The position numbers were made by a program, and so were the translations under genes. This document shows positions 3,239-49,900 of a stretch of 64,000 nt of DNA, one piece after another (within the stretch, counting starts at the first letter, position 1; every line of letters starts with the position of its first letter). The notes below the pieces were generated by a model. The model ran no database searches. It had not been told where the DNA came from and worked only from the letters and a program-made list of their open reading frames with translations. Source of the stretch: Atriophallophorus winterbourni (Eukaryota; Platyhelminthes; Trematoda; Plagiorchiida; Microphallidae); NCBI GenBank assembly GCA_013407085.1, contig JACCGJ010000230.1, positions 1 to 64,000 of the forward strand, given 5' to 3'.

Positions 3239-3412
3239 TTGTTTTACCGGACCCCAAAACTATTGACCTTGACATGTTTTCCGTTCACGGGTGATACGTG
3301 ACTGCTCTTCTCTACCGTTGTACACGTCTTGGCTATCGCGATACAATCTCCACTGTCCTGTGCGTTTTCTCTTACCTTCATGGGACGTTGTTGTAGTAGT
3401 CGATCTAATACA
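3239..3412 (+). mobile_element. Solo LTR related to the miniature LTR element at 44 kb
   Basis: The segment begins TGTAACTAC and ends CTAATACA, i.e. TG...CA. It follows the two LTRs at 44045-44222 and 44297-44465 in order. Shared blocks are TTGACCTTGA near the start, a TTCCGTT followed by a GTGATACGTGA-like stretch, GTACACGTCTTGGCTA, the TCTTACCTTCATGGGAC/TTCTTGGGGAC region, and a GTAGTAGTC end. No internal sequence or second LTR is adjacent and no clear target duplication was seen. This fits an old solo LTR left by recombination. Confidence 0.55.
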
Positions 3413-18655: not shown

Positions 18656-19023
18656 TGTTGATTCTTTTTACCTTCCCACCTACACTTCAATTTTTATGTG
18701 TATTTGTATTCCAAAATATCGTTGTTTTCGCTTCTTCCCTCTATTTTGTTTTACTCTTTCACCTTGAATAATTGACTCCATTTTGACCGCGCTAATTTTG
18801 GTTTGGACTCGTGTGCGTAACGTGATACGTGCTCGATACTGTTTTTGACATTGACCCGGATCTAACCCGGTTAACCCAATATTTGAGGTATGTTTTACAG
18901 TTATTTTGATTGCCTCAATATAGTACCGCTTTTGTTGACAAATCTTCGTTGGTTCTGAAATACCTGGGATTTTGCGCGTAACTCCATATTGGGGAATTCC
19001 TTGATTCTCAATTAGAATCAATA
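18656..19023 (+). repeat. 5' LTR of BEL/Pao element
   Basis: 368 bp, TG start, TA end with a terminal inverted repeat to its own start. It should carry the promoter and polyadenylation signals of the element. Differs from the 3' LTR at about five bases. Confidence 0.93.
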
Positions 19024-19120
19024 GTACTCAAATACTTTATTTCGTGGAGAATCCTTCGATCATCGCTGGATTTTGGCTCGACATTTGGTTCACACGACGG
19101 AGAATATCTCATTTTCAAAT

Positions 19121-22100
19121 ATGCCTAGAACCAGATCTGGCAAGTCGTCTAACTGTTTGAATGACGTTACCCTGAATCCCGTTCCCATTCCTGAACTCCC
19201 TAGTACTGAATTTTCTAACTCGCATTTTCATGATTCTATGTATTTTCCTATGCTCTCATCTCATTCCATTGAAAATTGCGATAATTTATCTGTCACTTCC
19301 GCTACCTTAATTTCTAACCAGCACCGTCCCCTTAGGTTAGATGACGCCGGTAGTGTAAGTTCTAATGCAGTCAAATCGCGAAAAGATCAGCGTCGGCAGT
19401 TAGCTAAGGAAGTACACGACGAAGAGTTAGCTATTGAAATGAAAGAGCTGGAGATCCGCAGGCGCAGTCTAGATGCTAAGCGTAAGATGATGCATGATTT
19501 CGATTCGTCCGACGAAGATGTTAAGTGTGATATCGGCCGAGACACTTTTGTGATGCGTGAAGAAAAAATCTGCCCCTTACGACAAACTATGGTTGAGAGT
19601 CCGGTTTCCGTTAGTTCGATGTTGCGTGAGGCTCCGATGAATGCAGCGGGCTCGAGGCGAAACTATGATACGCATGTTGACGGATTGCCTAAGATAGACA
19701 TTGAAAGGTTCGATGGCAATCCAACAGATTTCTGCAAATTTATCAAAGCCTTTGAACTGACTGTCGATGACCGCGTAACTAGCGAAAATCGCAAGTTGAT
19801 GTACTTGCTACATTATTGCGTTGGCGATGCGAAGAGCGCAATTGAACATTGTATTTACCTCCCGGATAGCGAAGGATATTGTCAAGCCCGACGCATCCTT
19901 AAGACGGAATTCGGTCGCCCACATGATATCGTCCAGTCATTTTTGAAAGAGATTCTCAATGGCGACATCATTAATCAAAATGACATCGGTTCGCTTCGAA
20001 ACCTGACACGCAGACTGCGCAATTGCGAGCTTGCTCTTGGACAGTTGAATCGCTTGAGCGAGCTAAACAATACGACAAATTTGAAGTTAATTGTCGAGCG
20101 CTTACCCAAACATTTGCGTTACAAGTGGGCTGAGTGCGTTGATGAAATCATTCGATTTGACGGAGAGCCCACCTTTGAGGACTTAGTTCGTTTCTTGGAG
20201 AGACAAGTCTCAATGGCTACTAGCTCTTTCGGTGCTTTAGCTAGTGGGCGTGAAGCGAAGGCTGGTCCACTGACACATGCGAATACTCGAAGATTTCGAT
20301 TGAATGTCACTTCAACAACTGAGACATCGCGATGTCCACAGTGCTCCATGACACATGCGTTACAAAATTGTACATCGTTCGGCAGTCTGTCTTATGCTGA
20401 AAGGACTAACAGACTTAAAATGTCTAAACTCTGCTTCAACTGCTTTCAAGCAAACCACATAGCAGCTGACTGCAAACAAGCTTCTGGATGTGGGAAAGAT
20501 GGTTGTAAGGGTAAAGATCACCTGCTCTTACATCGTACCGTTCAGCGTGAATACGCAATGAAGATTAATTCGACAAGCAATCAAAGATGTAGCATTTTCT
20601 TGTCCATCATTGCAGTGAGGGTAGTAGGTCCGAACGGAGTAGTTCTTACAAATGCACTTCTGGATAACGGGTCGGATGCGACATTGGTGACAGCTGACTT
20701 AGCCGAGGAATCAGGGCTGTCAGGTGCGCCAGCCTATGTTGACGTTACCTCAGTGCATGGTACACGCAAGCAAAAAACTGCCATCACGTCATTTGTCATT
20801 CAATCTCTGTATGATGGCACCAAAGTTGATGTTCATCAGGCGTACGTGATGGATTCTCTTCCCGTTGAAAAGGTGACAATTCCCGAAGAATCATTATTGA
20901 CGCAATTGAGTCACTTATCCGACGTCAAGTTAACTCGCATTCCGGATAAAACGGTTCGTATTTTATTGGCAGTTAATGTTCCAGAAGTACACTGGGTATT
21001 ACAGCAGCGGCTCGGTAAGCCAAAACAACCATTTGCACATTTGACACCATTGGGATGGACAATCATTGGTCCTACGTCGACAGTTGGGCATAGAGCGTCG
21101 ATAAATTGCCTCAACACCCAAAGAGACATAAACGAGGACATCTTGAAATTGTTTGAATGTGAATTTTCCGAGAATCGCGATCGCAGTACACTGTCCATGT
21201 CCATACAAGATAAACACATACTATCGATGGCCGAGGTTGGCACGCGTTTTCAAAGTGGACATTACGAAGTACCTATTCCTTGGAAATTCGATAAGCGTCA
21301 TGGCCCACGTAACCGTATACTGGCAGAAAAGAGGCTCAGCTATTTAAAGAGTCGATTGCTGAAAGACACGTCGTTGTTATCAAAATATGACGAAATATTT
21401 CGAGATTATCTAAGTAAGGGATACGTGGAAAAGCTTTTGCCTGCGGTTAATGAGGGCATTTGCTACATACCGCATCACCCAGTTTTGAATCCTCGAAAGC
21501 CGGATAAGGTGAGAATCGTGTTCGATTGTGCGGCGAAGTTTCATGGAACTTCTTTGAACGACTGCATACATCCTGGTCCTGATTTGACTAACAGCATCAC
21601 AGGAGTGCTTTTGAGATTTCGCTTGAAGGAGATCGCAATATCAGCTGATATCCAGGAGATGTTTCTTCAGGTCCGTCTTCCATTAGTTGATCGAGATTCA
21701 TTTTGTTTTCTCTGGCATACTGACGGAGATCTCAATCGTTCCCCAGAAACATACAAGTTGAATGTTCATCCATTCGGAGCAACTTCTTCGCCATTCTGTG
21801 CGAATTTTGCGTTGCGTAAAGCTGCTGACGATAATGCTGACAAGTTTAGCACGGACACTATATTAGTCGTAAAGAGGAATTTCTATGTTGACGACTGCTT
21901 GGTATCTGTCGATACTGCCGAAGATGCTATTAAACTGGCCGATGAACTCCGAAAGTTATTGCAACTTGGTGGGTTTCGTTTACATAAATGGGTTAGCAAT
22001 AATGTATCGGTACTGGAAAGTATACCCGCATCAGAAAGAGCAATACACCCAGGTGATTTAAATATTGCAGATTCAAGTTTACAACACACTTTGGGTCTAT

Positions 22101-23368
22101 GTTGGTCCGTTGGCAGAGATCTATTCAGATTTGTCGTCAATATTCCTCCTCGTCCTATATCCCGCCGTGGCATACTATCATGTATCGCATCATTGTATGA
22201 TCCCTTGGGGTTTGTTGCGCCTATTTTACTAAAGCCGAAAAGATTGTTACAAACATTATGCAAGAAAGGACACAGTTGGGACGAGGAGCTGATTGGTGTT
22301 GAAAGGAGAACTTGGGAAATCTGGAAAGAAGAGATACAACTCGTGAAGTCGTTGGAGATTCCGCGATGCATAAACCCGTCTGGGTTTAACTGTGAACATA
22401 TGTCTCTTCATATTTTCTCCGACGCATCGGAGGTTGGTTATGGATCAGTAGCGAACGTGCGATATTCATCTCCAGAAGTAAAACCGTATTGCAGTTTTGT
22501 GCTGGGGAAAGCGCGTGTTTGTCCTCTCAAACCTATTACTATTCCCAGGCTCGAATTACAGGCGGTGGTCCTTTCGGTAAAAATGTTGCGAAACATATAT
22601 GATGAACTTGGCTGGGATAATTTGAAGACTTACCTTTGGACTGATTCAACCATTGTTTTGTTCTATATTCACAATACTGAATCCCGATTTCAAACGTTTG
22701 TGGCTAATCGCATCGGTTTCATCCGTGAGCACACGGAGCCAACACAATGGAGACATATATCGTCGAACAATAACCCGGCAGATATTGGCTCTCGTGGTAT
22801 TGACGCTCGAGAATTTCATTTGCTTGATCGATGGCTGTACGGTCCAGGTTTTCTATTGACTGATGAACATGATTGGCCTGCATATCGCCCGAGTGGCTTA
22901 TCGCTTGATAACAAACATCTCGAGTTTAAAAGAAAAACCGTTACATTAGCGACTGTATCGACTCTACCCCCATTCGATAAGCTTCTCTGTTACTATTCAT
23001 CATGGAACAAGCTCATGTGTGCCGTTGCGTGGTTACGCCGATTTCAACTATACATCTTGCGTAGAATTGACACAACATTTACTATTAATTTAAAACTTGG
23101 CGCATTAACATTGGACGAACTTCAAGAAGCTGAATACTATATCTTGCGCTATGTCCAAGGTTTGTGCTTCGCAGAAGAGCTAAAGGCACTGCAAGGAATG
23201 TCCGAGAAGCTCATCACCAATATTTTGAAATCATCACAGTTGCGTAAACTAAACCCCATTTTGAAGAGAGATCTGTTGTGTGTTGGAGGCCGACTCGGAA
23301 GTGCTTCAATTGAACCCCAATGCATGCATCCCATCATACTACCCTCTAAACATCCCGTGACTAAATAA
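19121..23368 (+). CDS. BEL/Pao Gag-Pol polyprotein: Gag, protease, RT, RNase H
   Basis: Open for about 1415 codons from the first ATG (MPRTRSGKSS). The frame itself is open somewhat further upstream. Gag runs to about residue 400, with a coiled-coil-like charged segment and GNPTDFCKFIKAF typical of BEL/Pao Gag. Zinc-knuckle clusters follow (CPQCSMTHALQNC, CFNCFQANHIAADC). The aspartic protease (A17 family) shows ALLDNGSDATLV, with Asn in place of the usual Ser/Thr after the Asp. The RT shows ISADIQEMFLQV (motif A), HPFGATSSPFCAN and FYVDDCLVS (catalytic YVDD). RNase H has IFSDASEVGYG and LWTDSTIVL. The frame ends at a TAA in the HHCC region of integrase, apparently through a small indel near 23365. 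Confidence 0.92.
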   Translation: MPRTRSGKSSNCLNDVTLNPVPIPELPSTEFSNSHFHDSMYFPMLSSHSIENCDNLSVTSATLISNQHRPLRLDDAGSVSSNAVKSRKDQRRQLAKEVHDEELAIEMKELEIRRRSLDAKRKMMHDFDSSDEDVKCDIGRDTFVMREEKICPLRQTMVESPVSVSSMLREAPMNAAGSRRNYDTHVDGLPKIDIERFDGNPTDFCKFIKAFELTVDDRVTSENRKLMYLLHYCVGDAKSAIEHCIYLPDSEGYCQARRILKTEFGRPHDIVQSFLKEILNGDIINQNDIGSLRNLTRRLRNCELALGQLNRLSELNNTTNLKLIVERLPKHLRYKWAECVDEIIRFDGEPTFEDLVRFLERQVSMATSSFGALASGREAKAGPLTHANTRRFRLNVTSTTETSRCPQCSMTHALQNCTSFGSLSYAERTNRLKMSKLCFNCFQANHIAADCKQASGCGKDGCKGKDHLLLHRTVQREYAMKINSTSNQRCSIFLSIIAVRVVGPNGVVLTNALLDNGSDATLVTADLAEESGLSGAPAYVDVTSVHGTRKQKTAITSFVIQSLYDGTKVDVHQAYVMDSLPVEKVTIPEESLLTQLSHLSDVKLTRIPDKTVRILLAVNVPEVHWVLQQRLGKPKQPFAHLTPLGWTIIGPTSTVGHRASINCLNTQRDINEDILKLFECEFSENRDRSTLSMSIQDKHILSMAEVGTRFQSGHYEVPIPWKFDKRHGPRNRILAEKRLSYLKSRLLKDTSLLSKYDEIFRDYLSKGYVEKLLPAVNEGICYIPHHPVLNPRKPDKVRIVFDCAAKFHGTSLNDCIHPGPDLTNSITGVLLRFRLKEIAISADIQEMFLQVRLPLVDRDSFCFLWHTDGDLNRSPETYKLNVHPFGATSSPFCANFALRKAADDNADKFSTDTILVVKRNFYVDDCLVSVDTAEDAIKLADELRKLLQLGGFRLHKWVSNNVSVLESIPASERAIHPGDLNIADSSLQHTLGLCWSVGRDLFRFVVNIPPRPISRRGILSCIASLYDPLGFVAPILLKPKRLLQTLCKKGHSWDEELIGVERRTWEIWKEEIQLVKSLEIPRCINPSGFNCEHMSLHIFSDASEVGYGSVANVRYSSPEVKPYCSFVLGKARVCPLKPITIPRLELQAVVLSVKMLRNIYDELGWDNLKTYLWTDSTIVLFYIHNTESRFQTFVANRIGFIREHTEPTQWRHISSNNNPADIGSRGIDAREFHLLDRWLYGPGFLLTDEHDWPAYRPSGLSLDNKHLEFKRKTVTLATVSTLPPFDKLLCYYSSWNKLMCAVAWLRRFQLYILRRIDTTFTINLKLGALTLDELQEAEYYILRYVQGLCFAEELKALQGMSEKLITNILKSSQLRKLNPILKRDLLCVGGRLGSASIEPQCMHPIILPSKHPVTK

Positions 23369-23369
23369 A

Positions 23370-24468
23370 TACTATTCTTGTACGATACATCCATGAAGCG
23401 GAAGGTCATATGGGTGTTAATTGTGTTTTAGCCGCATCACGACGAAAATACTGGATACTGCGAGGTGCTTCTGTGGTGAAGGGTATCGTGCGTAAATGCA
23501 TCTCGTGCAGAATGCGATCCGCAAAACCGTCTGAACAAATTATGGCAGATTTACCGGAATGCCGATTGACACCTGGCTATGCCTTTGAGGCAACTGGAGT
23601 TGACATTTTCGGTCCGTTTTTGGTACGAGAAGGGCGTGTTAACAGAAAACGATATGGATGCATTTTTACCTGTCTGAAAACACGTGCAGTTCATTTAGAA
23701 GTTACGTATTCCTTATCAATTGATTCATTTCTGATGGCGTTATCCCGTTTTATTAATCGACGTGGCCCCCCTAATTATATGTTCAGTGACAGAGGCAGCA
23801 ATTTCGTTGGGGCAGAGCATGAACTGAGACGTTTTTCAAATGAACTTGACGATACCAAAGTTCACAAGAGTCTGTTGAACAAAGGGATCGAGTGGAAATT
23901 TAACCCTCCCTATAGTAGTCACCGCGGAGGAATTTGGGAGCGGCAGATCAGATCCGTACGCCGTATTTTGAGTGCAGTTTCACGGGAACAAGTCTTAACA
24001 GACGAATCCTTAATGACCTTTTTGAGCGAAGTGGAACGAATACTGAACAATCGGCCGATTGTACCGTTGTATGATGATCCGGACCAACCAATTGCGTTGA
24101 CCCCAAATCACCTGTTACTGGGCCGTGAACACGGCAGTGTGTTAGATGACTGCCTAAACCTCAGGGATCGGTATACGAAGCGCTGGCGACAAGCCCAAGT
24201 ACTTGCAAACGCGTTTTGGCGTCGTTGGTTGATAGAGTATTTACCATTGTTACAAGTGAGGCATAAATGGATGCGTCTGCGAAGAGAATTTGCTGTTGGC
24301 GACTATGTTCTTTACCAAAACGAAAGTGCGTCGCGCGGTTCGTGGAAGAAAGCGATCGTGTCTGAGACTCTACTCGGTGCTGACGGTCATGTACGGGAAG
24401 TTTTGTTACGCACCGCAGACGGGGAGCTTAAAAGAGATATACGCCGTGTGTGGTTAATTGGAAGGTGA
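23370..24468 (+). CDS. BEL/Pao integrase, separated from Gag-Pol by a frameshift
   Basis: The frame carries RYIHEAEGHMG (the His pair of the HHCC zinc finger) and CISC (the Cys pair). The DDE core follows: GVDIFGP (first Asp), FSDRGSNF (second Asp) and HRGGIWERQIRS (Glu), all present. The C-terminal part (HKWMRLRREFAVGDYVL ... IRRVWLIGR) is the domain that usually ends BEL/Pao polyproteins. The family normally has one uninterrupted polyprotein, so the shift at about 23365 is likely a disabling mutation or an assembly error. It is the only coding lesion I see in the element. Confidence 0.9.
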
Positions 24469-24498
24469 TGGAGAGTGATAGTTGTTAGAAAGCCGAGG

Positions 24499-24514
24499 TG
24501 GCTTTGGGGGGCGG
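24499..24514 (+). promoter_or_regulatory. Polypurine tract of BEL/Pao element
   Basis: GGCTTTGGGGGGCGG directly precedes the 3' LTR. In LTR elements this purine-rich run primes plus-strand DNA synthesis. Confidence 0.75.
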
Positions 24515-24882
24515 TGTTGATTCTTTTTACCTTCCCACCTACACTTCAATTTTTATGTGTATTTGTATTCCAAAATATCGTTGTTTTCGCTTGTTCCCTC
24601 TATTTTGTTTTACTCTTTCACCTTGAATAATTGACTCCATTTTGACCGCGCTATTTTTGGTTTGGACTCGTGTGCGTAACGTGATACGTGCTCGATACTG
24701 TTTTTGACATTGACCCGGATCTAACCCGGTTAACCCAATATTTGAGGTATGTTTTTCAGTTATTTTGATTGCCTCAATATAGTACCGCTTTTGTTGACAA
24801 ATCTCCGTTGGTTCTGAAATACCTGGGATTTTGCGCGTAACTCCATATTGGGGAATTCCTTGATTCTCAATAAGAATCAATA
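24515..24882 (+). repeat. 3' LTR of BEL/Pao element
   Basis: 368 bp, same ends as the 5' LTR and followed by the GTGGC target duplication. Confidence 0.93.
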
Positions 24883-24887
24883 GTGGC

Positions 24888-41305: not shown

Positions 41306-43556
41306 CAAGTGAAAATGTCTCGCAACTTTGGTCGAATTGACACCGCCTAACTACAAACTAAAGCAATGAATCTGAGTTTGGAACCAGACGAATTAGAATC
41401 TCGTGTAGAAATCAGGTGGAATATTATAAAAGGGCACCTTTCACAGCCACAGGATAATTTTGCTCTTCTACAACCAGTGAGAAGGCGAGGAAAACCACCC
41501 TGGTGGAGCGCGTCTATTCGCAAGGCAATTAGATGTCGTGAACGTAGCTGGAGGGCTTACAAATTCTGTGGAACTCACAGATCTAGACTGCAGTACATAC
41601 TGATCAGAAATTCAGCTGTTGCGCTGCAAAGGAAAGCTAAAAGGGACTTCGAATCCCGACTTGCCAAAAAAGCAAAGATTAACTTGAAACCTTTTATGGC
41701 TATGTTCAGTCCAAGCGATCATTAAGAGAAGAAATAGGTACGTTAGTGCTGGACGATGGCAGTACGGCTTTGACTGCACCGGAAAAAGCCGATGCGTTGC
41801 ATTCATTCTTCTGCAGTGTTTATAGACGCGATTCAGGTAACTGTTTAGAAACTCACGAGTGCAGAGCATCTCTTTTTAGCTCGGTGGAGGTTAATCAGAA
41901 AATGGTCACCACAGTTCTGTCGCAGCTGGATAAAACTAATTCAGCTGGCCCCGACGGTATACATCCAGCTATTCTTCAACCGCTCGCGAATATAGTTAGC
42001 CTTGCAATCAGAAATCTTTTCGAAGCTACTTTACTCCAGGGTATACTACCGGATGATTGGAAACGAGCGGCGGTAATAGCCATATACAAAGAGGGTCCCA
42101 TTTCGGATGTACGCAACTACAGGCCAGTAAGCCTGACAAGCATTCTTTGCAAGTGCTTGGAAAAAATCATTAGGCACCAGGTATGGAAACATTTGGTAGC
42201 CAATTCCTTACTATTCGATGCCCAGCACGGATTCTGGAAAGGAAGGTCCTGCCTAACCAATTTTCTAAACTTTCTGGACGAAGTGACATTACGCCTCGAT
42301 GAAGGGATAGTAGTCGAAGTCTGCTATCTTGATTTTCAAAAGGCATTTGACTCGGTGAACCATAGGTACCTTCTGCACAAACTAAGTATGTGTGGCGTCA
42401 CAGGTGACCTACATCGATGGTTAGACAGCTTCTTAACTAATCACACTAACTATGTTAGAATTGCAGGGGAGTGCTCGCAGAAATCACTGATTCTCATTGG
42501 ATTGCCTCAAGGCTCGGTGCTTGGTCCATTACTTTTTCCTATTTTTGTAAACGACCCGGCAGCGTGCTTGAGTTCACGCTGCTTCCTGTTTGCTGATGAT
42601 GTTAAGATCCTAGGAACCGACTGTAGAGATACGCTTATCTTTGATTTAGAAAAAGTAATCGAGTGGACAAGGACCTGGGACTTGTCACTACACCTGGGGA
42701 AGAGCTGTCTTCTGACGACTGATGTAACGACAACCCAACTAGAAGTTGATGAAGGAACTATCAGAATAGCGGCTGCTCAGAAAGTAAAGGATCTTGGCAT
42801 TACTATAACAGGCGATTTTAAATGGGCTATTCAACGTGCTGAAGCGGCAAACTAGGCTCGCAGAGAATTATTCAGACTTCGCTCAGCGTTATCTTGCCGA
42901 AAACCTTCAATCTTCATTCGCTTATACAAAGTAGTCGGGCGGCCTCACTTAAAGTACTGCGCTCAATCCTGGGCATCGTACTTAAAAAATGATATAGCAT
43001 GTATCGAAATGGTCCAGCGTCTTGCGACTACGATGATTGATGGTTATGCAGGTAAAACTTATGAGGCTAGACTCAAGAACCTCGGTTTGTTCTCACTGAA
43101 GAGACGGCGGCTGCGAAGTGACCTAATAGAAGCTTCCAAGATTCTAAAGGGTTTTACGGGTGATAATATTACTGAAATCCTTCTTCTTGCCCCTAAAGCA
43201 GCTACAAGGGGTAATTCCATGAAACGTCTTAAGAGTAGGCCCAGGTTGCTGGCACGTGAGCACTTTTTCAGCAAATGTGTGGACAACTTCTGGAACAAGC
43301 TCCCAGATTGTATAGTAAGCCTCCTAAATGTGTTGAGCTTTAAAAGGGAATTAGACGTTAAATGGTCTATCATATTTGTGCATATTGTCTAATAAAAAAC
43401 TTTGAAAAAAAACAACAAAAAAACGTATTTTTTTTCATTTTTATCTTATCTGTCTAGGCCTGGACAACCTGAAAGCAAATTAGCCCACATGCAGTCTATG
43501 ACTGTGTTTCACTATACCTCAACTAGGCTAGTGATTTTATACACCACACACGCACC
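41306..43556 (+). pseudogene. LINE family A (copy 2), 5'-truncated
   Basis: Begins just after the ACTGA tail of the previous LINE. Frames: 41366-41725 (linker, PPWWSASIRKAIRCRERS), 41746-42855 (RT) and 43009-43392 (C terminus: RRRLRSDLIEASKILKGF, FWNKLPD). RT motifs are EVCYLDFQKAFDSVNH, GLPQGSVLGPLLFPIFVND and FLFADDVKILG (catalytic Asp pair intact). Lesions: a one-base shift near 41690, an amber codon at 42853-42855 (position normally Gln) and a few substitutions. The 3' UTR is at 43393-43556. The same two lesions occur in the copy at 52-56 kb. Confidence 0.85.
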
Positions 43557-43852
43557 ATACTAGGAAGTGAAATTTCAGTGTCTGCAACGGAAGATGATAA
43601 CCATGTCTCAGTCACAGCTATCACGTCGAAGTTTTGAGCAGCTTGTCGAACACGAAGTTCAGAAAGTTTACTGAGCAAGCCTTGGGCGTTCGCATAGAAC
43701 CACTTCAGGATTTCGCGCGATAGGGCGGAGTCTGCAGAGTTCTTTTGTACTTTCATTATGCCGATCCTGAAAATACCGGCTGCGATAAGTTTTTGATGCA
43801 CTAACACTTTTATCAGCAGAAGCACACTGAAGCTTGTCGATTCGCTTTAGAA
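43557..43852 (-). pseudogene. LINE family C, start of endonuclease (copy 1)
   Basis: Minus-strand frame with KWFYANAQGLLSKLSELRVR (the N-terminal Asn motif), IAVTETWLSSS (catalytic TETW) and TEISLPSM. It matches 49556-49846 almost base for base. It stops abruptly at the family A 3' end on the left and the Gypsy LTR on the right. Confidence 0.75.
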
Positions 43853-43854
43853 GG

Positions 43855-44573
43855 CAACTATTATTATTTTCCTCAAAAACTCATTATAACTTATACCTCA
43901 TTATAATTCATGATTCTCGACTCTGATTGGTCCATTTTGTCGGCCATAATGATTCAGTGTATAAATACACACGAGCGGCAGCATAATTGCTTCGTGCTCA
44001 GAGACGTTAACGCTTTTTGTCTAAACGACCTGCCTTTGTTCTTGTGTAACAACCTTTTTGACTCTACATAACATTTGACCTTGATAAATTAACTTCCGTT
44101 TCGTTCGTGCGTGCATCGTGAACGCACTGTACACCTTTTGGCTACCGCTATTTATCTTCCAGTCAACCTGCCTTTTCTCCAACGTTCTTGGGGACATTAT
44201 TGTAATAATCTGGTCTACTACAAATTGGTGAGCCCGACGTGATTGTCAATTCCTGATCAGAAGTCTCCTCTGATCAGACTTCTTGGAAGGGGGCTGTGTA
44301 ACAACATTGATTGACTCTACATAACATTTGATTTTGATAAATTAACTTCCGTTTCGTTCGTGCGTGCATCGTGAACGTACACGTTTTAGCTACCGCTATA
44401 TATCTTCCAGTCAAACTGCCTTTTCTCCAACGTTCTTGGGGACATTATTGTAGTAATCTACTACACTTGCTACGCGTAGTGTTGGGTTTATTTAGTCACT
44501 TGTGACTAAAGATTTTCAGTGTTAAACATTTTGGGTAATTAATACTCGGGTTCTACTCGGGTAATATATAACA
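43855..44573 (+). repeat. 5' LTR of Gypsy element, interrupted by a miniature LTR element
   Basis: 43855-44044 and 44470-44573 together equal the 3' LTR minus its first eight bases. The intervening 425 bp are the 421-bp insertion plus one 4-bp target duplicate. Confidence 0.88.
44045..44465 (+). mobile_element. TRIM-like miniature LTR element inside the Gypsy 5' LTR
   Basis: 421 bp. LTR 1 is 44045-44222 and LTR 2 is 44297-44465, both TGTAACAAC...CTACTACA. The 74-bp interior has a primer-binding-site-like TTGGTGAGCCCGACGTG just after LTR 1, a short inverted repeat (CTGATCAGAAGTCTCCTCTG and its partner) and a polypurine tract (GGAAGGGGGCT) just before LTR 2. It is flanked by the 4-bp direct repeat CTTG (44041-44044 and 44466-44469), which closes the host LTR precisely. 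No coding capacity. LTR-PBS-PPT-LTR without genes is the definition of TRIM elements. The PBS resembles the tRNA-Trp type known in trematode CsRn1-clade Gypsy elements (from memory). Confidence 0.85.
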
Positions 44574-44607
44574 TTATTGGCGACGGGGATTTGAATTTTT
44601 TTTTTAA

Positions 44608-45140
44608 ATGGATCAGAGTAAATTAGAAATTTTTCTCGAACAGCAAATAAAGTTGATGGAATTAATAATTCAAAGTAAAATTCCAGGTACTCTAGCGCTA
44701 ATGTCACGTTCGAGACGTGGTTCCGTAGGTATGATGATGTATTCCGCGTAGATTTTGCCGCACAGGACGATGCATGGAAAGTTAGACTCCTACTTCGCAA
44801 ACTTGTCCCCAGTGAACTCGATAAATATTGTAACTTTATCTTGCCACGAAACCCACGCGACCGTTCATTCATACAGACGGTCGAAACACTGAAACAACTA
44901 TTTGGAGTCAGGTCATCACACTTTAACACACGTTATCGTTGCCTAAAACTGGTTATGCAGGTATCCGACGATTTCTCAACACACATGGGCATTGTTAACA
45001 GAGAGTGTGAGCGGTTTAAGCTTCGTTCACTAACGGATGATCAATTTAAATCGCTCATATTTATATGCAGTCTCCAGTATTCCAGTTTCACAGATATCAT
45101 GACCCGGCTCCTTAATCGATTGGAACAGGGCCCTTAACTC
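44608..45140 (+). pseudogene. Gypsy Gag remnant
   Basis: ATG at 44608 (MDQSKLEIFLEQQIKLMELI) follows the leader by 34 bases. After a shift the Gag-like sequence continues at 44841-45137 with FIQTVETLKQLFGVRSSHFN and LTDDQFKSLIFICSL, as in Gypsy retrotransposon Gag of the RETROTRANS_gag type. No intact zinc knuckle is seen. Confidence 0.6.
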
Positions 45141-45589
45141 ACGCTCCAAGCCATTGGTGACGAATATCTTCGATTGGTAAATCTCCAACGGGATTCGGCT
45201 ATGGTCCAATATGGGGGCCATGGCAAAGCTGCAGTTAATCTCCAACGGGATTCCTCTATGGTCCACCCTGGGGATCATGACAAACATGCAGTACATTTAA
45301 TCCATAAGAAGATACGCATTCTTGGCCCGAATCAACCTGGTTCCCAGAAACCAACTTCATTTTGCCAGGATCCAAGAAGCCTCCTTTCGCGTGTTGACTA
45401 TGCGGCGCATGGCATTCCGTCAAATTCTGCCCGTTCAAGCAACACCGATGTCAACGATGTAACATCTTTGGTCACAAGGATGGTTTCTGTCAACAGAGTA
45501 TTGATCGCTCGAGGTCTGCACACAAGCCTTCGAAAAAGTCTCTCAGTCTTTCTTCTACATTCCAGGTCAACGCAGCCGATCGGAGAAAA

Positions 45590-45720
45590 TTCGCAATGGT
45601 TCAGATCAACGATCAATCTGTTCGATTGCAGTTGGACACTGCATCGGACATTACGATCATTTCCTGAAAACTCTGGCGGAAACTTGGTTCCCCACAACTC
45701 AAACCTACGACACAGACTGC
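45590..45720 (+). pseudogene. Gypsy aspartic protease remnant
   Basis: The frame starting MVQINDQSVRLQLDTASDIT carries the protease active-site region. The usual D-S/T-G triad reads D-T-A, which would be expected to impair catalysis. It is followed at once by a stop. Confidence 0.6.
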
Positions 45721-46053
45721 CACCAGTGCCTGTAGAGGTTCCGTACAGCTGACTGGACAGCTACAATGCCAAATCTCATTCGGAAGCTCAACGGTCGTAG
45801 GCACGTGTTACGTGTCTAATTCACAACTCAACCTGTTTGGCCTCGATTGGTGAGATCTTCTCGATTTGGCTCGCTTTCCGATCAGTGCAATCTGCAATCA
45901 AGTACAAGCAACCGAAACACTGCAGAAAAAGCGAGACGTGATAATGCTTGAACATGCAACCGTGTATACAAACGAACTTGGAACATGTAACATGACGCAA
46001 GCTAATCTCCATCTCAAAATGACGCAAAGCCTGTATTCCGCCCGAAACGACCT

Positions 46054-46688
46054 TTGCCGTACGCATCCCTACCACAAGTCGAAGCTGAACTTCAAAGGCT
46101 ACAGGATCAAGTTGTTCTGGTTCCAGTAACGTACTCTGCCTGGGCAGCACCCATCGTTGTCGTGAAAAAGCCGAATGGATCCATCCGAATCTGCGCCGAT
46201 TTTTCAACTGGTTTGAATGCCGCTTTAGAAAATCACCACTATCCATTACCGGTCGCGGATGATTTTTTCACAATGCTCAATGGTGGTAAGTACTTCGCGA
46301 AGCTCGACCTAGCTGACGCCTATCTGCAGATCGATGTGGCACCTGATTCACGAGAACCGCTAACGATCAATACCCACAAGGATTGTTCCAGTATCAGCGT
46401 CTTTCTTCTGGTGTGAAGACTGCTCCAATTGTTTTCCAACAACTGATGGACACCATTATGTCTGGCATCCAAGGTGTGGCCGCATACCTAGACGATCTAC
46501 TCATTGTCGGTTCCTCCGAAGACGAATTCGATGGCCGCATCAACCAGACGTTGAAACGGATCGCTGAAAGTGGTTTACGCCTTCGTCTAGAGAAATGCCA
46601 GTTCTATATGAAATCAATAAAATACCTTGGTTTCATTTTCTATCAGAGTGGACGCCACCCTGACCCTGGCAACATACAATCAATCTAG
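46054..46688 (+). pseudogene. Gypsy reverse transcriptase
   Basis: Two overlapping frames. 46054-46416 has APIVVVKKPNGSIRICADF (motif 1-2) and YFAKLDLADAYLQI (motif A Asp). 46383-46688 has FQYQRLSSGVKTAPIVFQ (motif B) and VAAYLDDLLIVGS (catalytic YLDD), then LRLEKCQF and IKYLGF. A one-base shift separates them near 46385, and an amber codon at 46686-46688 precedes RNase H. Confidence 0.85.
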
Positions 46689-47420
46689 CAGATGCCGGCC
46701 TCGAAAGATGTTACATCACTGCGATCATTCCTTGGTTTGATCAGTTATTACAGTGCATTCCTGCCATCACTCCATACTGTGCGTCCACCGCTCAATCGAC
46801 TTCTTCAAAAAGATGTCCCATGGAATTGGTCAAGAGAATGCGAAACAGCTTTTATGAAGCTAAAATCATTGTTAACATCTAACATGTTACTGACGAATTA
46901 CGATTTAAAACTGCCGATCGTCGTGGCAGCCAATGCATCTGGATATGGTGTTGGTGTTGTAATTTTTCACAAGTTTCCGGATGGAAACGAGAAAGTGATT
47001 ATGCATGCTTCACGATCATTGAATCCAGTTGAACGCAACTATGGTCAAATCGAAAAAGAAGCATTAGCTCTCATCTTCGCGGTCAAACGATTACACAAGT
47101 TGATCTATAATCATCGTTTTACGTTGCTAACCGACCACAAGCCTTTGATTTCGATATTCGGCTCGAAAAAAGTATACCAGCACATGCTGCAAACCGGTTA
47201 CAACGATGGTCTCTCATACTATTGGGATACAATTTCGATATACAATATCGCCATTCCGAAGATTTTGGTCAAGCGGACGCGCTGTCCCGCCTAATCCCGG
47301 TTCGAGATCAAGCAGACGAGGATACAGTCATTGCATGCGTCTCCATCGAGCAAGCTATGCAGCGACAATTTGATGACGCAGTGCGGGGATTGCCTGTCAA
47401 AGCTAAGGACATTAAATAAT
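46689..47420 (+). pseudogene. Gypsy RNase H and linker
   Basis: 46692-47180 contains FLGLISYYSAFLPSL, LPIVVAANASGYGVGVV (the first catalytic Asp is replaced by Asn), EKEALALIFAVKRLHKLIY and FTLLTDHKPL (second Asp). A shift near 47175 moves the linker (YRHSEDFGQADALSRL) into the frame 47222-47419, which then stops at TAA. Confidence 0.8.
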
Positions 47421-47440
47421 GTACGCAATCAGACGAAACT

Positions 47441-48247
47441 TTGTTGCAAGCAATCAACCATACTCACTGTGTTTGGCCGAAAGTTACGCCTGCTGGGGAA
47501 CTATTGCAATTCTACCAAAGACGTGAGTCGCTTTCAATTATTGACGAGTGCCTAATGTTCAGTGATTGCGTTGTTGGTCCAAAGTATCTACGCGATCGTG
47601 TCCTTCGACAATTCCACAATGGGTACCCAGGCATTCAACGCATGAAGGCGATCGCTCGAAGTTTCGCTTATTGGCCTGGTATGGACGCAGATATTGATCT
47701 ATTCGTCAAGTCATGCCGTCAATGTCAGCAGGCAGCCAAGATGCCAAACCGTGTACCAATTGCACCATGGCCTACGTCAGAAAAACCGTGGCAACGAATT
47801 CATGTCGATTTCGCAGGTCCAATAAACGGGGTCAAATACCTCGTCGTGGTCGATTCTTACTCGAAATGGCCCGAAATCATCGAGATGTCATATGCTACAT
47901 CCAGCAACACGATCAGCGCCATGCGTCGTTTGTTTAGTCAGCATGGATTACCAGAAACTCACGTGTCCGATAATGGCTCGCAATTCACCTCGGACGTTTT
48001 CGCCGAATTTTGCCGCCAGAACAATGTGACACATCTACGGTCGCCGCCTTACCATCCTAAGTCAAATAGCCAGGCCGAACGATTCGTCGACACATTCAAA
48101 TGTGCTCTTCTGAAATCACGTGGGGAGGGGACATCCGCCGATAGTCTTCAACGTTTTCTGCTGGTTTACAGAACTACGCCGAACGATACGTTGCCTAGCC
48201 ACAAAACCCCCACCGGAGCACTCATGGGCTGGAAGCTACGCACTTGA
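47441..48247 (+). pseudogene. Gypsy integrase
   Basis: The zinc finger is visible (QFHNGYPGIQRMKAIA, CRQCQQ). The DDE core is intact: IHVDFAGP, HVSDNGSQFTS, NSQAERFVDTF. The frame continues from the linker after a stop at 47417-47419. The C-terminal domain (48248-48649) is out of frame and partly damaged. Confidence 0.85.
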
Positions 48248-48679
48248 AACAATGCTATGCTGCCCAAGTCAAACAAACCGCCGCTCTATTAGAATCAACA
48301 GTCGTGTTTCGAACCAGGAACTGCCGTCCACGTACGAGACTACATAACATCAAGTCCACCATGGATCGATGGTAACATCATCCGTCGCAGAGGCAGTGTA
48401 TTGTTCGATGTCAAAGTTGGAAAGGGTGTCGTGACACGACACAAAAATCAGTTACGCCTGAGATCCGCAACCTCCGTCACGCTCGTCCAGATCCGGATAC
48501 CACAGGACATACTGCATGAAACATTCAACCTTCCAACACCAAGTGAATGTATCACGACTGAAATACCGACTGACCGAAGTCTGCAACCACGTCGCTGGAC
48601 AACCAGACAAAGAAAACACGTGAAACCATTGCAGGTCAATCCACGCTAGTCCCGGTATTAAGAATCTCAAAAGGGAAGG

Positions 48680-48987
48680 TGTTGAGGAACTATTATTATT
48701 TTCCTCAAAAACTCATTATAACTTATACCTCATTGTAATTTATGATTCTCGATTCTGATTGGTCCATTTCGTCGGCCATAATGATTCAGTGTATAAATAC
48801 ACACGAGCGGCAGCATAATGGCTTCATGGTCAGAGACGGTAACGCTCTTTGTCTAAACGACCTGCCTTTGTTCTTGCTACGCGTAGTGTTAAGTTTAGTA
48901 AGTCACTTGTGACTAATAGCATGAGGGTTTTCAGTGTTAAACATTTTGTTAATTAATACTTGGGTTCTACTCATGTAATATATAACA
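48680..48987 (+). repeat. 3' LTR of Gypsy element
   Basis: 308 bp, TG...CA ends, preceded by a purine run. Lacks the miniature element carried by the 5' LTR, so that insertion came after this element integrated. Confidence 0.88.
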
Positions 48988-48999
48988 GTAATGTAGGAT

Positions 49000-49900
49000 T
49001 TCAAACGTTTAGAGATATTAGGAGACAAAGGCCGTAGAATAGGCTTTAATCTTCTAGAACAACAGTATAGTAGCTGGAATAAAAAACAAGAATATGAATG
49101 TTATAGATAGCATGGAAACAAGCATACAAATAAAGGAAAAATTATAATCATGATAAAAGCTTAATCAAGAATAGCGTATCGTGTGATAAAATGGAGCTCA
49201 ATGCGGTCTTTGAAATGGGGCAGAAATAACCGAAAATGGTAGTGCGTTCCAAGAACGAGGAATCCAGATGCCAAAGGAGTGTCTGCTGCAGTCTAATCTA
49301 CTGTGATGATCCTGATTTCCTGAGTATGGGGCCATTTTCATCATATGTTGAAATCAGCAACAGCTTGAGCATTTTTGTGGGCGGTAGATCACAGCTAGTA
49401 GAGCAGAGACACTGTTTCTGAGCTTCAAGCGGCACACCTTGGAACCTATGGTTTGCAGACGAATGTGAGATAGTGGTTCACAGTGGAGTTTGGCGTTATA
49501 ATACAAGATAACACCACCCTTGGTTGGACGATCTTTCCGAAAGACAATCATACTAGGAAGTGAAATTTCAGTGTCTGTAACGGAAGATGATAACCATGTC
49601 TCAGTCACAGCTATCACGTCGAAGTGTTGAGAAGCTTGTCGAACACGAAGTTCAAGAAGTTTACTGAGCAGGCTTTGGGCGTTCGCATAAAATCACTTCA
49701 GGATTTCGCGCGATAGGGCGGAGTCTGCAGAGTTCTTTTGTACTTTCATTATGCCGATCCTGAAAATACCGGCTGCGATAAGTTTTTGATGCACTAACAC
49801 TTCCATCGGCAGAAGCACACTGAAACTTGTCGATTCGCTTCAGAAGGGCTCGGAACGGCGAATCTCGGAACGTGCAAAACTTTTGTATTGGTGTCAACAT
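49000..49900 (-). pseudogene. LINE family C (copy 2), endonuclease region with internal deletion
   Basis: Read leftward: the end of ORF1 and start of ORF2 (49900-49661), TETWLSSSVTDTEISLPSM and KGGVILYYNAKLHCEPLSH (49617-49430, catalytic TETW). After the strand AVIYRPP a jump occurs to a possible C-terminal remnant ending near 49150. The RT is missing. The part 49556-49846 is nearly identical to 43560-43850. Confidence 0.65.

What the first reader, a model, noticed from the sequence alone, without database searches (positions are those of the whole stretch)
44045..44465. A 421-bp TRIM-like element with tRNA-Trp-type primer site, nested in a Gypsy LTR
Seen: two LTRs of 178 and 169 bp with TG...CA ends, a 74-bp interior holding TTGGTGAGCCCGACGTG and GGAAGGGGGCT, and CTTG duplicated at both sides. 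Removing it restores the host LTR exactly. Known: TRIMs are gene-less LTR elements best studied in plants; the primer site resembles that of CsRn1-clade Gypsy elements of trematodes. Inferred: a non-autonomous partner of a CsRn1-like element. Such miniature elements are little described in flatworms.
Basis: partly seen in the sequence, partly recalled or inferred. Interest (0 to 1): 0.75.

Follow-up and report, generated by a model that had tools for sequence, protein, structure and literature searches.

The report
Miniature deletion product of a retrotransposon
A 421-base, gene-less jumping element that looks like a single stripped-down copy of a larger retrotransposon family in what appears to be a flatworm genome, perhaps made in one misstep of DNA copying at the end of its tRNA primer; it hints at how such miniatures are born, but it is not shown to be a family of its own.

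Summary
At 44045-44465 lie two TG..CA LTRs (178 and 169 bp), a 74-bp interior and a CTTG duplication; the host LTR's empty site is exact. The primer site matches 19 nt of this genome's own tRNA-Trp. The LTR belongs to a CsRn1-type family; one 5.1-kb member has an intact Gag-Pol frame, 48% identical to a Clonorchis Gag-Pol. No second copy with this junction was found (the DNA searches score only 40 candidates). The interior is the PBS joined directly to the last 55 bp of a family-B 3' end (98-100% identical). It is thus a TRIM-like deletion derivative, not a shown TRIM family. The LTR is a two-subfamily mosaic. The join lies at the 18-19 nt tRNA-copied end of the PBS. Two elements with inverted interiors break there too, with 6- and 9-nt homology, which suggests mis-transfer of plus-strand strong-stop DNA. 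But two other shortened elements break elsewhere, so ordinary deletion stays a strong rival. Flatworm TRIMs are already published (PMC4558846).

The parts
44041..44044 (.). target site duplication CTTG, left copy
   Evidence: present once in the host 3' LTR
44045..44222 (+). 5' LTR, 178 bp, mosaic: family-B bases up to position 41, family-A bases from position 44
44226..44244 (+). primer binding site, 19 nt complementary to the 3' end (with CCA) of the genome's tRNA-Trp
44242..44245 (+). junction zone: ATT (ATTG if the parent leader read GATTG) shared by the PBS end and the 3' donor
44242..44296 (+). 55-bp 3'-end segment, 98-100% identical to the 3' interior of family B (29 of 29 loci L026-L054, which were fetched by this match)
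44253..44277 (+). hairpin upstream of the purine tract (9-bp stem), similar sequence in families A and B; function unknown
44285..44296 (+). polypurine tract GGAAGGGGG plus CTG next to the 3' LTR
44297..44465 (+). 3' LTR, 169 bp, same mosaic as the 5' LTR
44466..44469 (.). target site duplication CTTG, right copy
43856..44579 (+). host 5' LTR of a Gypsy element, split by the insertion
48688..48993 (+). host 3' LTR (empty-site reference)

Best explanation
It is a single, gene-less miniature derivative of a CsRn1-type Ty3/gypsy family, formed during reverse transcription and then integrated with the family's usual 4-bp target duplication. Shown: LTR, PBS, 3' end and TSD size are those of the family; the interior is the PBS joined to the last 55 bp before the 3' LTR; the LTR is an A/B mosaic. 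Inferred: the join was made when plus-strand strong-stop DNA (LTR plus the 18-19 nt copied from the tRNA-Trp primer up to the m1A58 stop) annealed to the 3'-end sequence through ATT instead of to the proper minus-strand PBS; extension through PPT and LTR then gave LTR-PBS-PPT-LTR in one step. Also inferred: the enzymes came in trans from a full-length family member. I saw no sign that this copy multiplied afterwards.
For: Family: of 15 element stretches compared, 13 have matching 4-bp TSDs; L066 and the tandem unit of L068 do not. The L015 ORF (1346 codons) holds gag (DUF7041), RT, RNase H and integrase domains and a sub-threshold protease match, and is 48% identical over 1309 aligned positions to a Clonorchis Gag-Pol. 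3' donor: 98-100% over 55 bp. Junction: L014 and L069 also change sequence right after GTGATT, into inverted gag (9-nt homology GACGTGATT) and inverted pol (6-nt homology GTGATT); no assembly gap lies there, and a plain deletion cannot make an inversion. In loci held, 40 PBS starts were classed, 31 with ordinary leaders and 9 without; five of the 9 follow this family's LTR end (window, L014, L069, duplicates L011/L013) and all five change after GTGATT. Passages of PMC13191261: plus-strand strong-stop DNA normally ends before m1A58 after 18 nt, and m1A58 occurs in tRNA-Trp primers. Nesting order fits: 9/168 LTR differences here, 21/298 in the host.
Against: Homology at the window's own junction is only 3 nt (4 if the parent leader was the GATTG type of L023, L063, L064). 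Two other shortened family-B elements with sense interiors, L032/L047 (1080 bp) and L040/L051 (1120 and 1237 bp), break elsewhere; L040's break lies in a stretch much alike in the leader and the interior donor (ATCCTTCGTGTA), as an ordinary deletion would. L036/L038, a chimera, breaks after only part of the PBS and lies outside the pattern. The word TTGGTGAGCCCGACGTGATT occurs 63 times in the genome; I have read 6 of these (3 rearranged, 3 ordinary leaders). The loci were not a random sample: ranks long LTR+PBS matches first. What follows GTGATT in L011/L013 is unplaced.
Confidence: 0.42

Rival explanations
1. Copy-choice deletion during reverse transcription: RT jumped between short direct repeats (ATT/ATTG) in the 3' end and behind the PBS of a full-length RNA. 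The product is the same, with no special role for the tRNA-copied end.
For: Leaders reading GTGATTG exist (L023, L063, L064) and would share 4 nt with the donor AATTGTC. L040/L051 looks like a deletion between similar stretches. A/B mosaics and chimeras (L036/L038; LTR mosaic) point to template switching in this family.
Against: It does not explain why two elements with inverted interiors also break exactly after GTGATT.
Confidence: 0.32
2. Post-integration deletion: a longer element inserted at CTTG and later lost its interior by microhomology-mediated repair, leaving LTRs and TSD untouched.
For: TSD and LTRs cannot tell this apart; a 3-nt microhomology is compatible with such repair.
Against: The break falls exactly at the tRNA-copied end on one side and leaves PBS and PPT complete; the same 5' breakpoint recurs in L014 and L069.
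Confidence: 0.15
3. A true TRIM family: the unit was amplified in trans, and further copies are diverged, missing from the assembly or below the searches' reach.
For: It has LTRs, PBS, PPT and TSD; whole-genome DNA searches scored only 40 of 2648, 1851 and 450 candidates, and the patterns allowed no mismatch.
Against: A junction-spanning query and two anchored patterns return the window copy alone, and a third for longer interiors returns nothing. The second-best hit (C4694) is a complete element nested in another one, with TSD AGTC.
Confidence: 0.08

Closest known systems
CsRn1 / PwRn1 (CsRn1 clade of Ty3/gypsy, trematodes and insects)
   Same: tRNA-Trp PBS, CHCC Gag motif, 4-bp TSD, Gag-Pol (PMC2582038: passages and section 5 read; own data)
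   Different: the parent family here has ~180-bp LTRs (PwRn1: 381 bp); the window unit has no coding region at all
ta-TRIM of taeniid cestodes (PMC4558846; abstract and sections 17 and 24 read)
   Same: flatworm, ~200-bp TG..CA LTRs, PBS and PPT, no genes, 4-5 bp TSD
   Different: ta-TRIM has a ~590-bp interior, a tRNA-Leu PBS and at least 142 full-length copies in E. multilocularis; here one copy found, 74-bp interior, tRNA-Trp PBS, and direct sequence kinship to an autonomous family
SMART (292-bp LTR elements; passage of PMC10886601; that they are plant elements is recalled)
   Same: extremely short LTR-PBS-PPT-LTR layout
   Different: thought to be moved by Copia elements; here Gypsy (CsRn1-type)
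Internally deleted defective copies of retroviruses and LTR elements (general knowledge, recalled)
   Same: LTRs, PBS and PPT kept, genes lost, made by template switching
   Different: here the 5' breakpoint sits at the tRNA-copied end, as in two relatives with inverted interiors

Membership tests
TRIM (structural definition) | two LTRs with TG..CA, total under 1000 bp | tested here: met
   421 bp; length limit from a passage of PMC10886601
TRIM (structural definition) | PBS complementary to a host tRNA just inside the 5' LTR | tested here: met
   19 nt match to the genome's tRNA-Trp, beginning after 3 spacer bases
TRIM (structural definition) | polypurine tract at the 3' LTR | tested here: met
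   GGAAGGGGGCTG; similar tracts in families A and B
TRIM (structural definition) | no protein-coding capacity | tested here: met
   74-bp interior
TRIM (structural definition) | flanking target site duplication | tested here: met
   CTTG on both sides, once in the empty site
TRIM (as an amplified family) | several copies with the same interior at different sites | tested here: not met
   window copy only; none; the searches are incomplete (40 candidates scored per DNA search, exact patterns)
TRIM (as an amplified family) | mobilised in trans by an autonomous element | not testable with these tools
   the LTR/PBS/PPT/TSD match to family A is only circumstantial
CsRn1 clade (parent family A) | tRNA-Trp primer site | tested here: met
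   many A copies match about 13 nt, family-B copies and the window 18-19 nt
CsRn1 clade (parent family A) | CHCC Gag motif | tested here: met
   CWIHRKYRDNARRCIKPC in the L015 ORF, aligned with CWYHQTFGPQARKCQPPC of P0013; one copy examined
CsRn1 clade (parent family A) | phylogenetic placement of Pol in the clade | not tested
   only pairwise: 48% identity to Q9BM81_CLOSI; that this entry is CsRn1 itself is recalled. No tree was built
CsRn1 clade (parent family A) | 4-bp TSD | tested here: met
   11 of 11 family-A elements cut out

The most novel reading that the evidence does not exclude
The tRNA-copied 3' end of plus-strand strong-stop DNA acts as a roaming primer inside the particle. In sense orientation it yields a TRIM in one step (LTR-PBS-PPT-LTR); in antisense it yields elements with inverted interiors. 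Some TRIMs would then be born in a single copying error rather than by gradual reduction, and the host tRNA's m1A58 stop would set the breakpoint.
Probability: 0.3. Interest if true: 0.6.

Novelty: new member of a known kind. Interest (0 to 1): 0.4.

Why it matters
How TRIMs arise is rarely seen, because their parents are usually unknown: PMC4558846 (section 24) says that no mobilising partner of a TRIM had been identified before its own candidate. Here parent subfamilies, the tRNA primer and the exact junction can all be read, and two rearranged relatives share the 5' breakpoint. That makes a concrete prediction about birth by strong-stop mis-transfer, testable on 57 further genomic sites already located. 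The element itself is a single and probably inert copy.

Tried and rejected
Rejected: C4694 as a second TRIM (76% over 1-415); the locus is a complete 3.4-kb element with TSD AGTC inserted just behind the PBS of another copy. Rejected: L043 as a 902-bp miniature (TSD CTAT); its interior holds a 20-N assembly gap, the only N run in the loci held. Rejected: that the window's two LTRs came from different subfamilies; both carry the same mosaic, share three bases seen in none of 60 A/B LTRs nor in L069 (positions 16, 20, 30), and one shared only with L069 (position 78). Rejected as evidence: the 9-nt word GATCAGAAG shared by the 3' hairpin and the tRNA-Trp anticodon arm (same sense, so no pairing; probably chance). 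The fold of the interior is only mildly better than shuffles (z -2.16, 5 of 200 as good). The bacterial promoter/terminator scan and Rfam (0 matches in 43000-49500) added nothing of use. The species was not identified: a cox1-family search did not complete. Well-covered Dicrocoelium matches are 57% for the family-A protein and 52-53% for a window LINE protein (whose top-scoring row is a bird record at 43%), so a digenean-like flatworm is an inference. No viral, metagenome, phage or plasmid collection was searched. No tree and no structure prediction was made.

They speak against a general rule of breakpoints at the PBS end, so I lowered the favoured mechanism from 0.55 to 0.42 and the novel case from 0.4 to 0.3, and raised copy-choice deletion from 0.22 to 0.32.

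Not answered, machine busy. Answered on an identical repeat: 17, 34, 53, 84, 85. Never answered: the cox1 search and the exact counts of GTGATTGCAC and GTGATGCAC.

Full report
OBSERVATION. The unit is real and at the stated place: LTRs 44045-44222 and 44297-44465, interior 44223-44296, CTTG on both sides. The PBS word is unique in the window; allowing 3 mismatches, shuffles give 0.07 on average. The host LTR, rejoined with one CTTG, aligns across the insertion point without a gap to its partner at 48688-48993. Pairwise, the two LTRs of the small unit differ at 9 of 168 aligned positions plus 3 gaps; the host LTRs differ at 21 of 298 plus 2 gaps. The order is as nesting requires, though the two values are close.

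PRIMER. The genome holds tRNA-Trp genes that ARAGORN recognises (L055, L057). Their 3' end plus CCA is complementary to TGGTGAGCCCGACGTGATT, that is 19 nt, at 44226-44244. The G in TGAGCCC, which differs from the mammalian sequence as I recall it, is therefore this animal's own tRNA sequence.

PARENT FAMILY. A whole-genome DNA search in G000 (537 Mb, 15,840 contigs) gives 2648 first-look candidates, of which 40 were scored. From loci L009-L024 and L065-L068 (20 loci) fifteen element stretches were cut and compared. Family A: three of 5.0-5.2 kb (L015, L016, L022); seven of 3.2-3.6 kb (L009, L010, L014, L017, L018, L020, L023); and L024, 4.9 kb, which by its BLAST pieces is a short form with about 1.55 kb of extra sequence. 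All eleven have matching 4-bp TSDs. Family B: two of 2.0 and 2.15 kb with TSDs (L065, L067), one with a damaged 5' start (L066), and one unit of a tandem array (L068). L015 alone of the fifteen has an open frame of 1346 codons, with DUF7041 gag, RT, RNase H and integrase domains and a sub-threshold protease match. It is 48% identical over 1309 aligned positions to a Clonorchis sinensis Gag-Pol and keeps the CHCC motif that PMC2582038 gives as a mark of CsRn1-like Gag (passage; motif). L009, a short form, keeps gag and the end of pol; L065 and L067 keep only a fragment of pol.

WHAT THE INTERIOR IS. Positions 44242-44296 match the 3' interior of family B at 98-100% over 55 bp in 29 of 29 loci L026-L054, which were fetched by that very match. 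Family-A copies match at 81-87% over 47-53 bp. The 19-nt PBS precedes this segment directly. The ordinary leaders are different: GTGAT(T)GCACGAAT.. in family B and some A copies, GACATACACGC.. in other A copies. A junction-spanning 66-bp query returns only the window copy end to end (450 candidates, 40 scored), and so does a 131-bp query (1851 candidates, 40 scored). Anchored exact patterns for interiors of this size return one match, the window; for gaps of 62-92 bases there is none. The apparent second copy in C4694 is a nested full element. No amplified TRIM family is shown.

OTHER SHORT MEMBERS. L032/L047 (1080 bp; two contigs 99.9% alike over 3084 bp, so probably one locus; no matching TSD seen) and L040/L051 (1120 and 1237 bp, likewise probably one locus, 5' LTR start damaged) are shortened family-B elements. 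Their leaders continue beyond the PBS and their deletions start elsewhere, in L040 within a stretch much alike in leader and donor. L043 looks 902 bp long but holds a 20-N gap.

MOSAIC LTR. Of 26 LTR sites where 26 A and 34 B LTRs differ consistently, the window LTRs carry B bases up to position 41 and A bases from position 44, with one breakpoint (a few sites carry neither base). L069 (C1701) changes between positions 41 and 46, returns to a B base at position 109, and shares an A at position 78 that none of the 60 A/B LTRs has. The mosaic is thus probably older than the window insertion and marks a small third lineage. A search with the first 99 bp of the 3' LTR found, after the window's own two LTRs, C1701 at 85% over the full length; C12770 matches positions 43-99 at 96% and was not read (720 candidates, 40 scored).

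MECHANISM. L069 reads LTR end-PBS-(300 bp of pol, inverted)-LTR; the start of its 5' LTR was not fetched. L014 (C2689, TSD AAAG) reads LTR-PBS-(inverted gag, leader and LTR)-rest of element. In both, and in the window, the sequence changes right after GACGTGATT. The donor strand in L014's relatives carries GACGTGATT (9 nt; some copies read GACGTAATT) and in L069's relatives GTGATT (6 nt) at the join; the window donor carries ATT. Inside L014 the inverted copy of its own leader reads GACGTACACGC, so the terminal GTGATT did not come from that leader; it could come from the donor as well as from the tRNA. Passages of PMC13191261 say that plus-strand strong-stop DNA normally ends before m1A58 after copying 18 nt of the primer, and that tRNA-Trp primers carry m1A58. 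Mis-annealing of that end would explain all three. In the loci held, 40 PBS starts were classed (duplicate places counted apart): 31 ordinary, 9 not. Of the 9, five follow this family's LTR end (window, L014, L069, duplicates L011/L013) and all five change after GTGATT; the other four (L030/L037, L056/L058) do not follow this LTR end.

AGAINST IT. The sample is small and was not drawn at random. The window has only 3-4 nt of homology; GATTG leaders exist, so copy-choice deletion between ATTG repeats would give the same bases. L032/L047 and L040/L051 show that other interior losses in this family have ordinary breakpoints; of the three distinct shortened sense elements read without gaps, one (the window) breaks at the PBS end. 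L036/L038 breaks inside the PBS. L011/L013 continue into sequence that I could not place. Genome-wide the 20-nt word ending in GTGATT occurs 63 times; 6 have been read, 3 rearranged (window, L014, L069) and 3 ordinary (L023, L063, L064).

LITERATURE. TRIMs are known from plants, fungi, ants and taeniid cestodes (PMC4558846 sections 24 and 17), and PMC10886601 adds bivalves and other animals (passages). Two searches for TRIMs with flatworm or Schistosoma (10 of 11 papers listed each) showed, by titles and abstract starts, only taeniid TRIMs. Searches for plus-strand strong-stop DNA with non-autonomous or aberrant elements listed, by title, no paper on TRIM birth. That holds for this open-access library only.

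VERDICT. A correct and careful observation: a new member of a known kind (a TRIM-like, CsRn1-family deletion derivative), single-copy as far as the searches reach. Its value lies in the junction, which with two rearranged relatives points to a testable, though not established, route for the birth of TRIMs.

Noticed in passing
L056 and L058 (C1138, C10997; 96.8% alike, probably related copies): A PBS-like stretch behind CCACAAATT continues through the complement of tRNA-Trp past position 58 into the anticodon arm, with a base change at position 58, as if the stop at m1A58 had been read through.
   Followed up: partly
L036 and L038 (C9311, C5391): Chimera of inverted family-A pol joined to the 3' third of family B, ending in an LTR followed closely by an inverted LTR; it suggests that A and B templates mix.
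   Followed up: partly
L068 (C2962:7800-12700): Tandem array with a 2161-bp period in which each unit starts with a family-B LTR and about 285 bp of following sequence, then sequence without a match to A or B.
   Followed up: partly
L011 and L013 (C15459, C6271): A family-A LTR preceded by a family-A 3' end is followed by a PBS ending in GTGATT and then by sequence unlike A or B that holds a 259-bp direct repeat.
   Followed up: partly
L009, L010, L017, L020, L023: 3.2-3.4 kb family-A forms with LTRs nearly identical (0-2 differences, some gaps); L009 keeps gag and only the end of pol: a recent gag-bearing non-autonomous form, reminiscent of TR-GAG elements of plants (name recalled).
   Followed up: partly
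window 18656-24884: BEL/Pao element with LTRs 98.6% alike over 370 bp and long frames 19025-23368 and 23365-24468; best relative found is 40% identical.
   Followed up: partly
window 3319-3412: A 71-73% match to the second half of the same LTR family, probably an old relic.
   Followed up: no
window 44176-44194 and 44424-44442: Possible hairpin TCTCCAACGTTCTTGGGGA in both LTRs; the stretch is well kept in the A and B LTRs shown.
   Followed up: no
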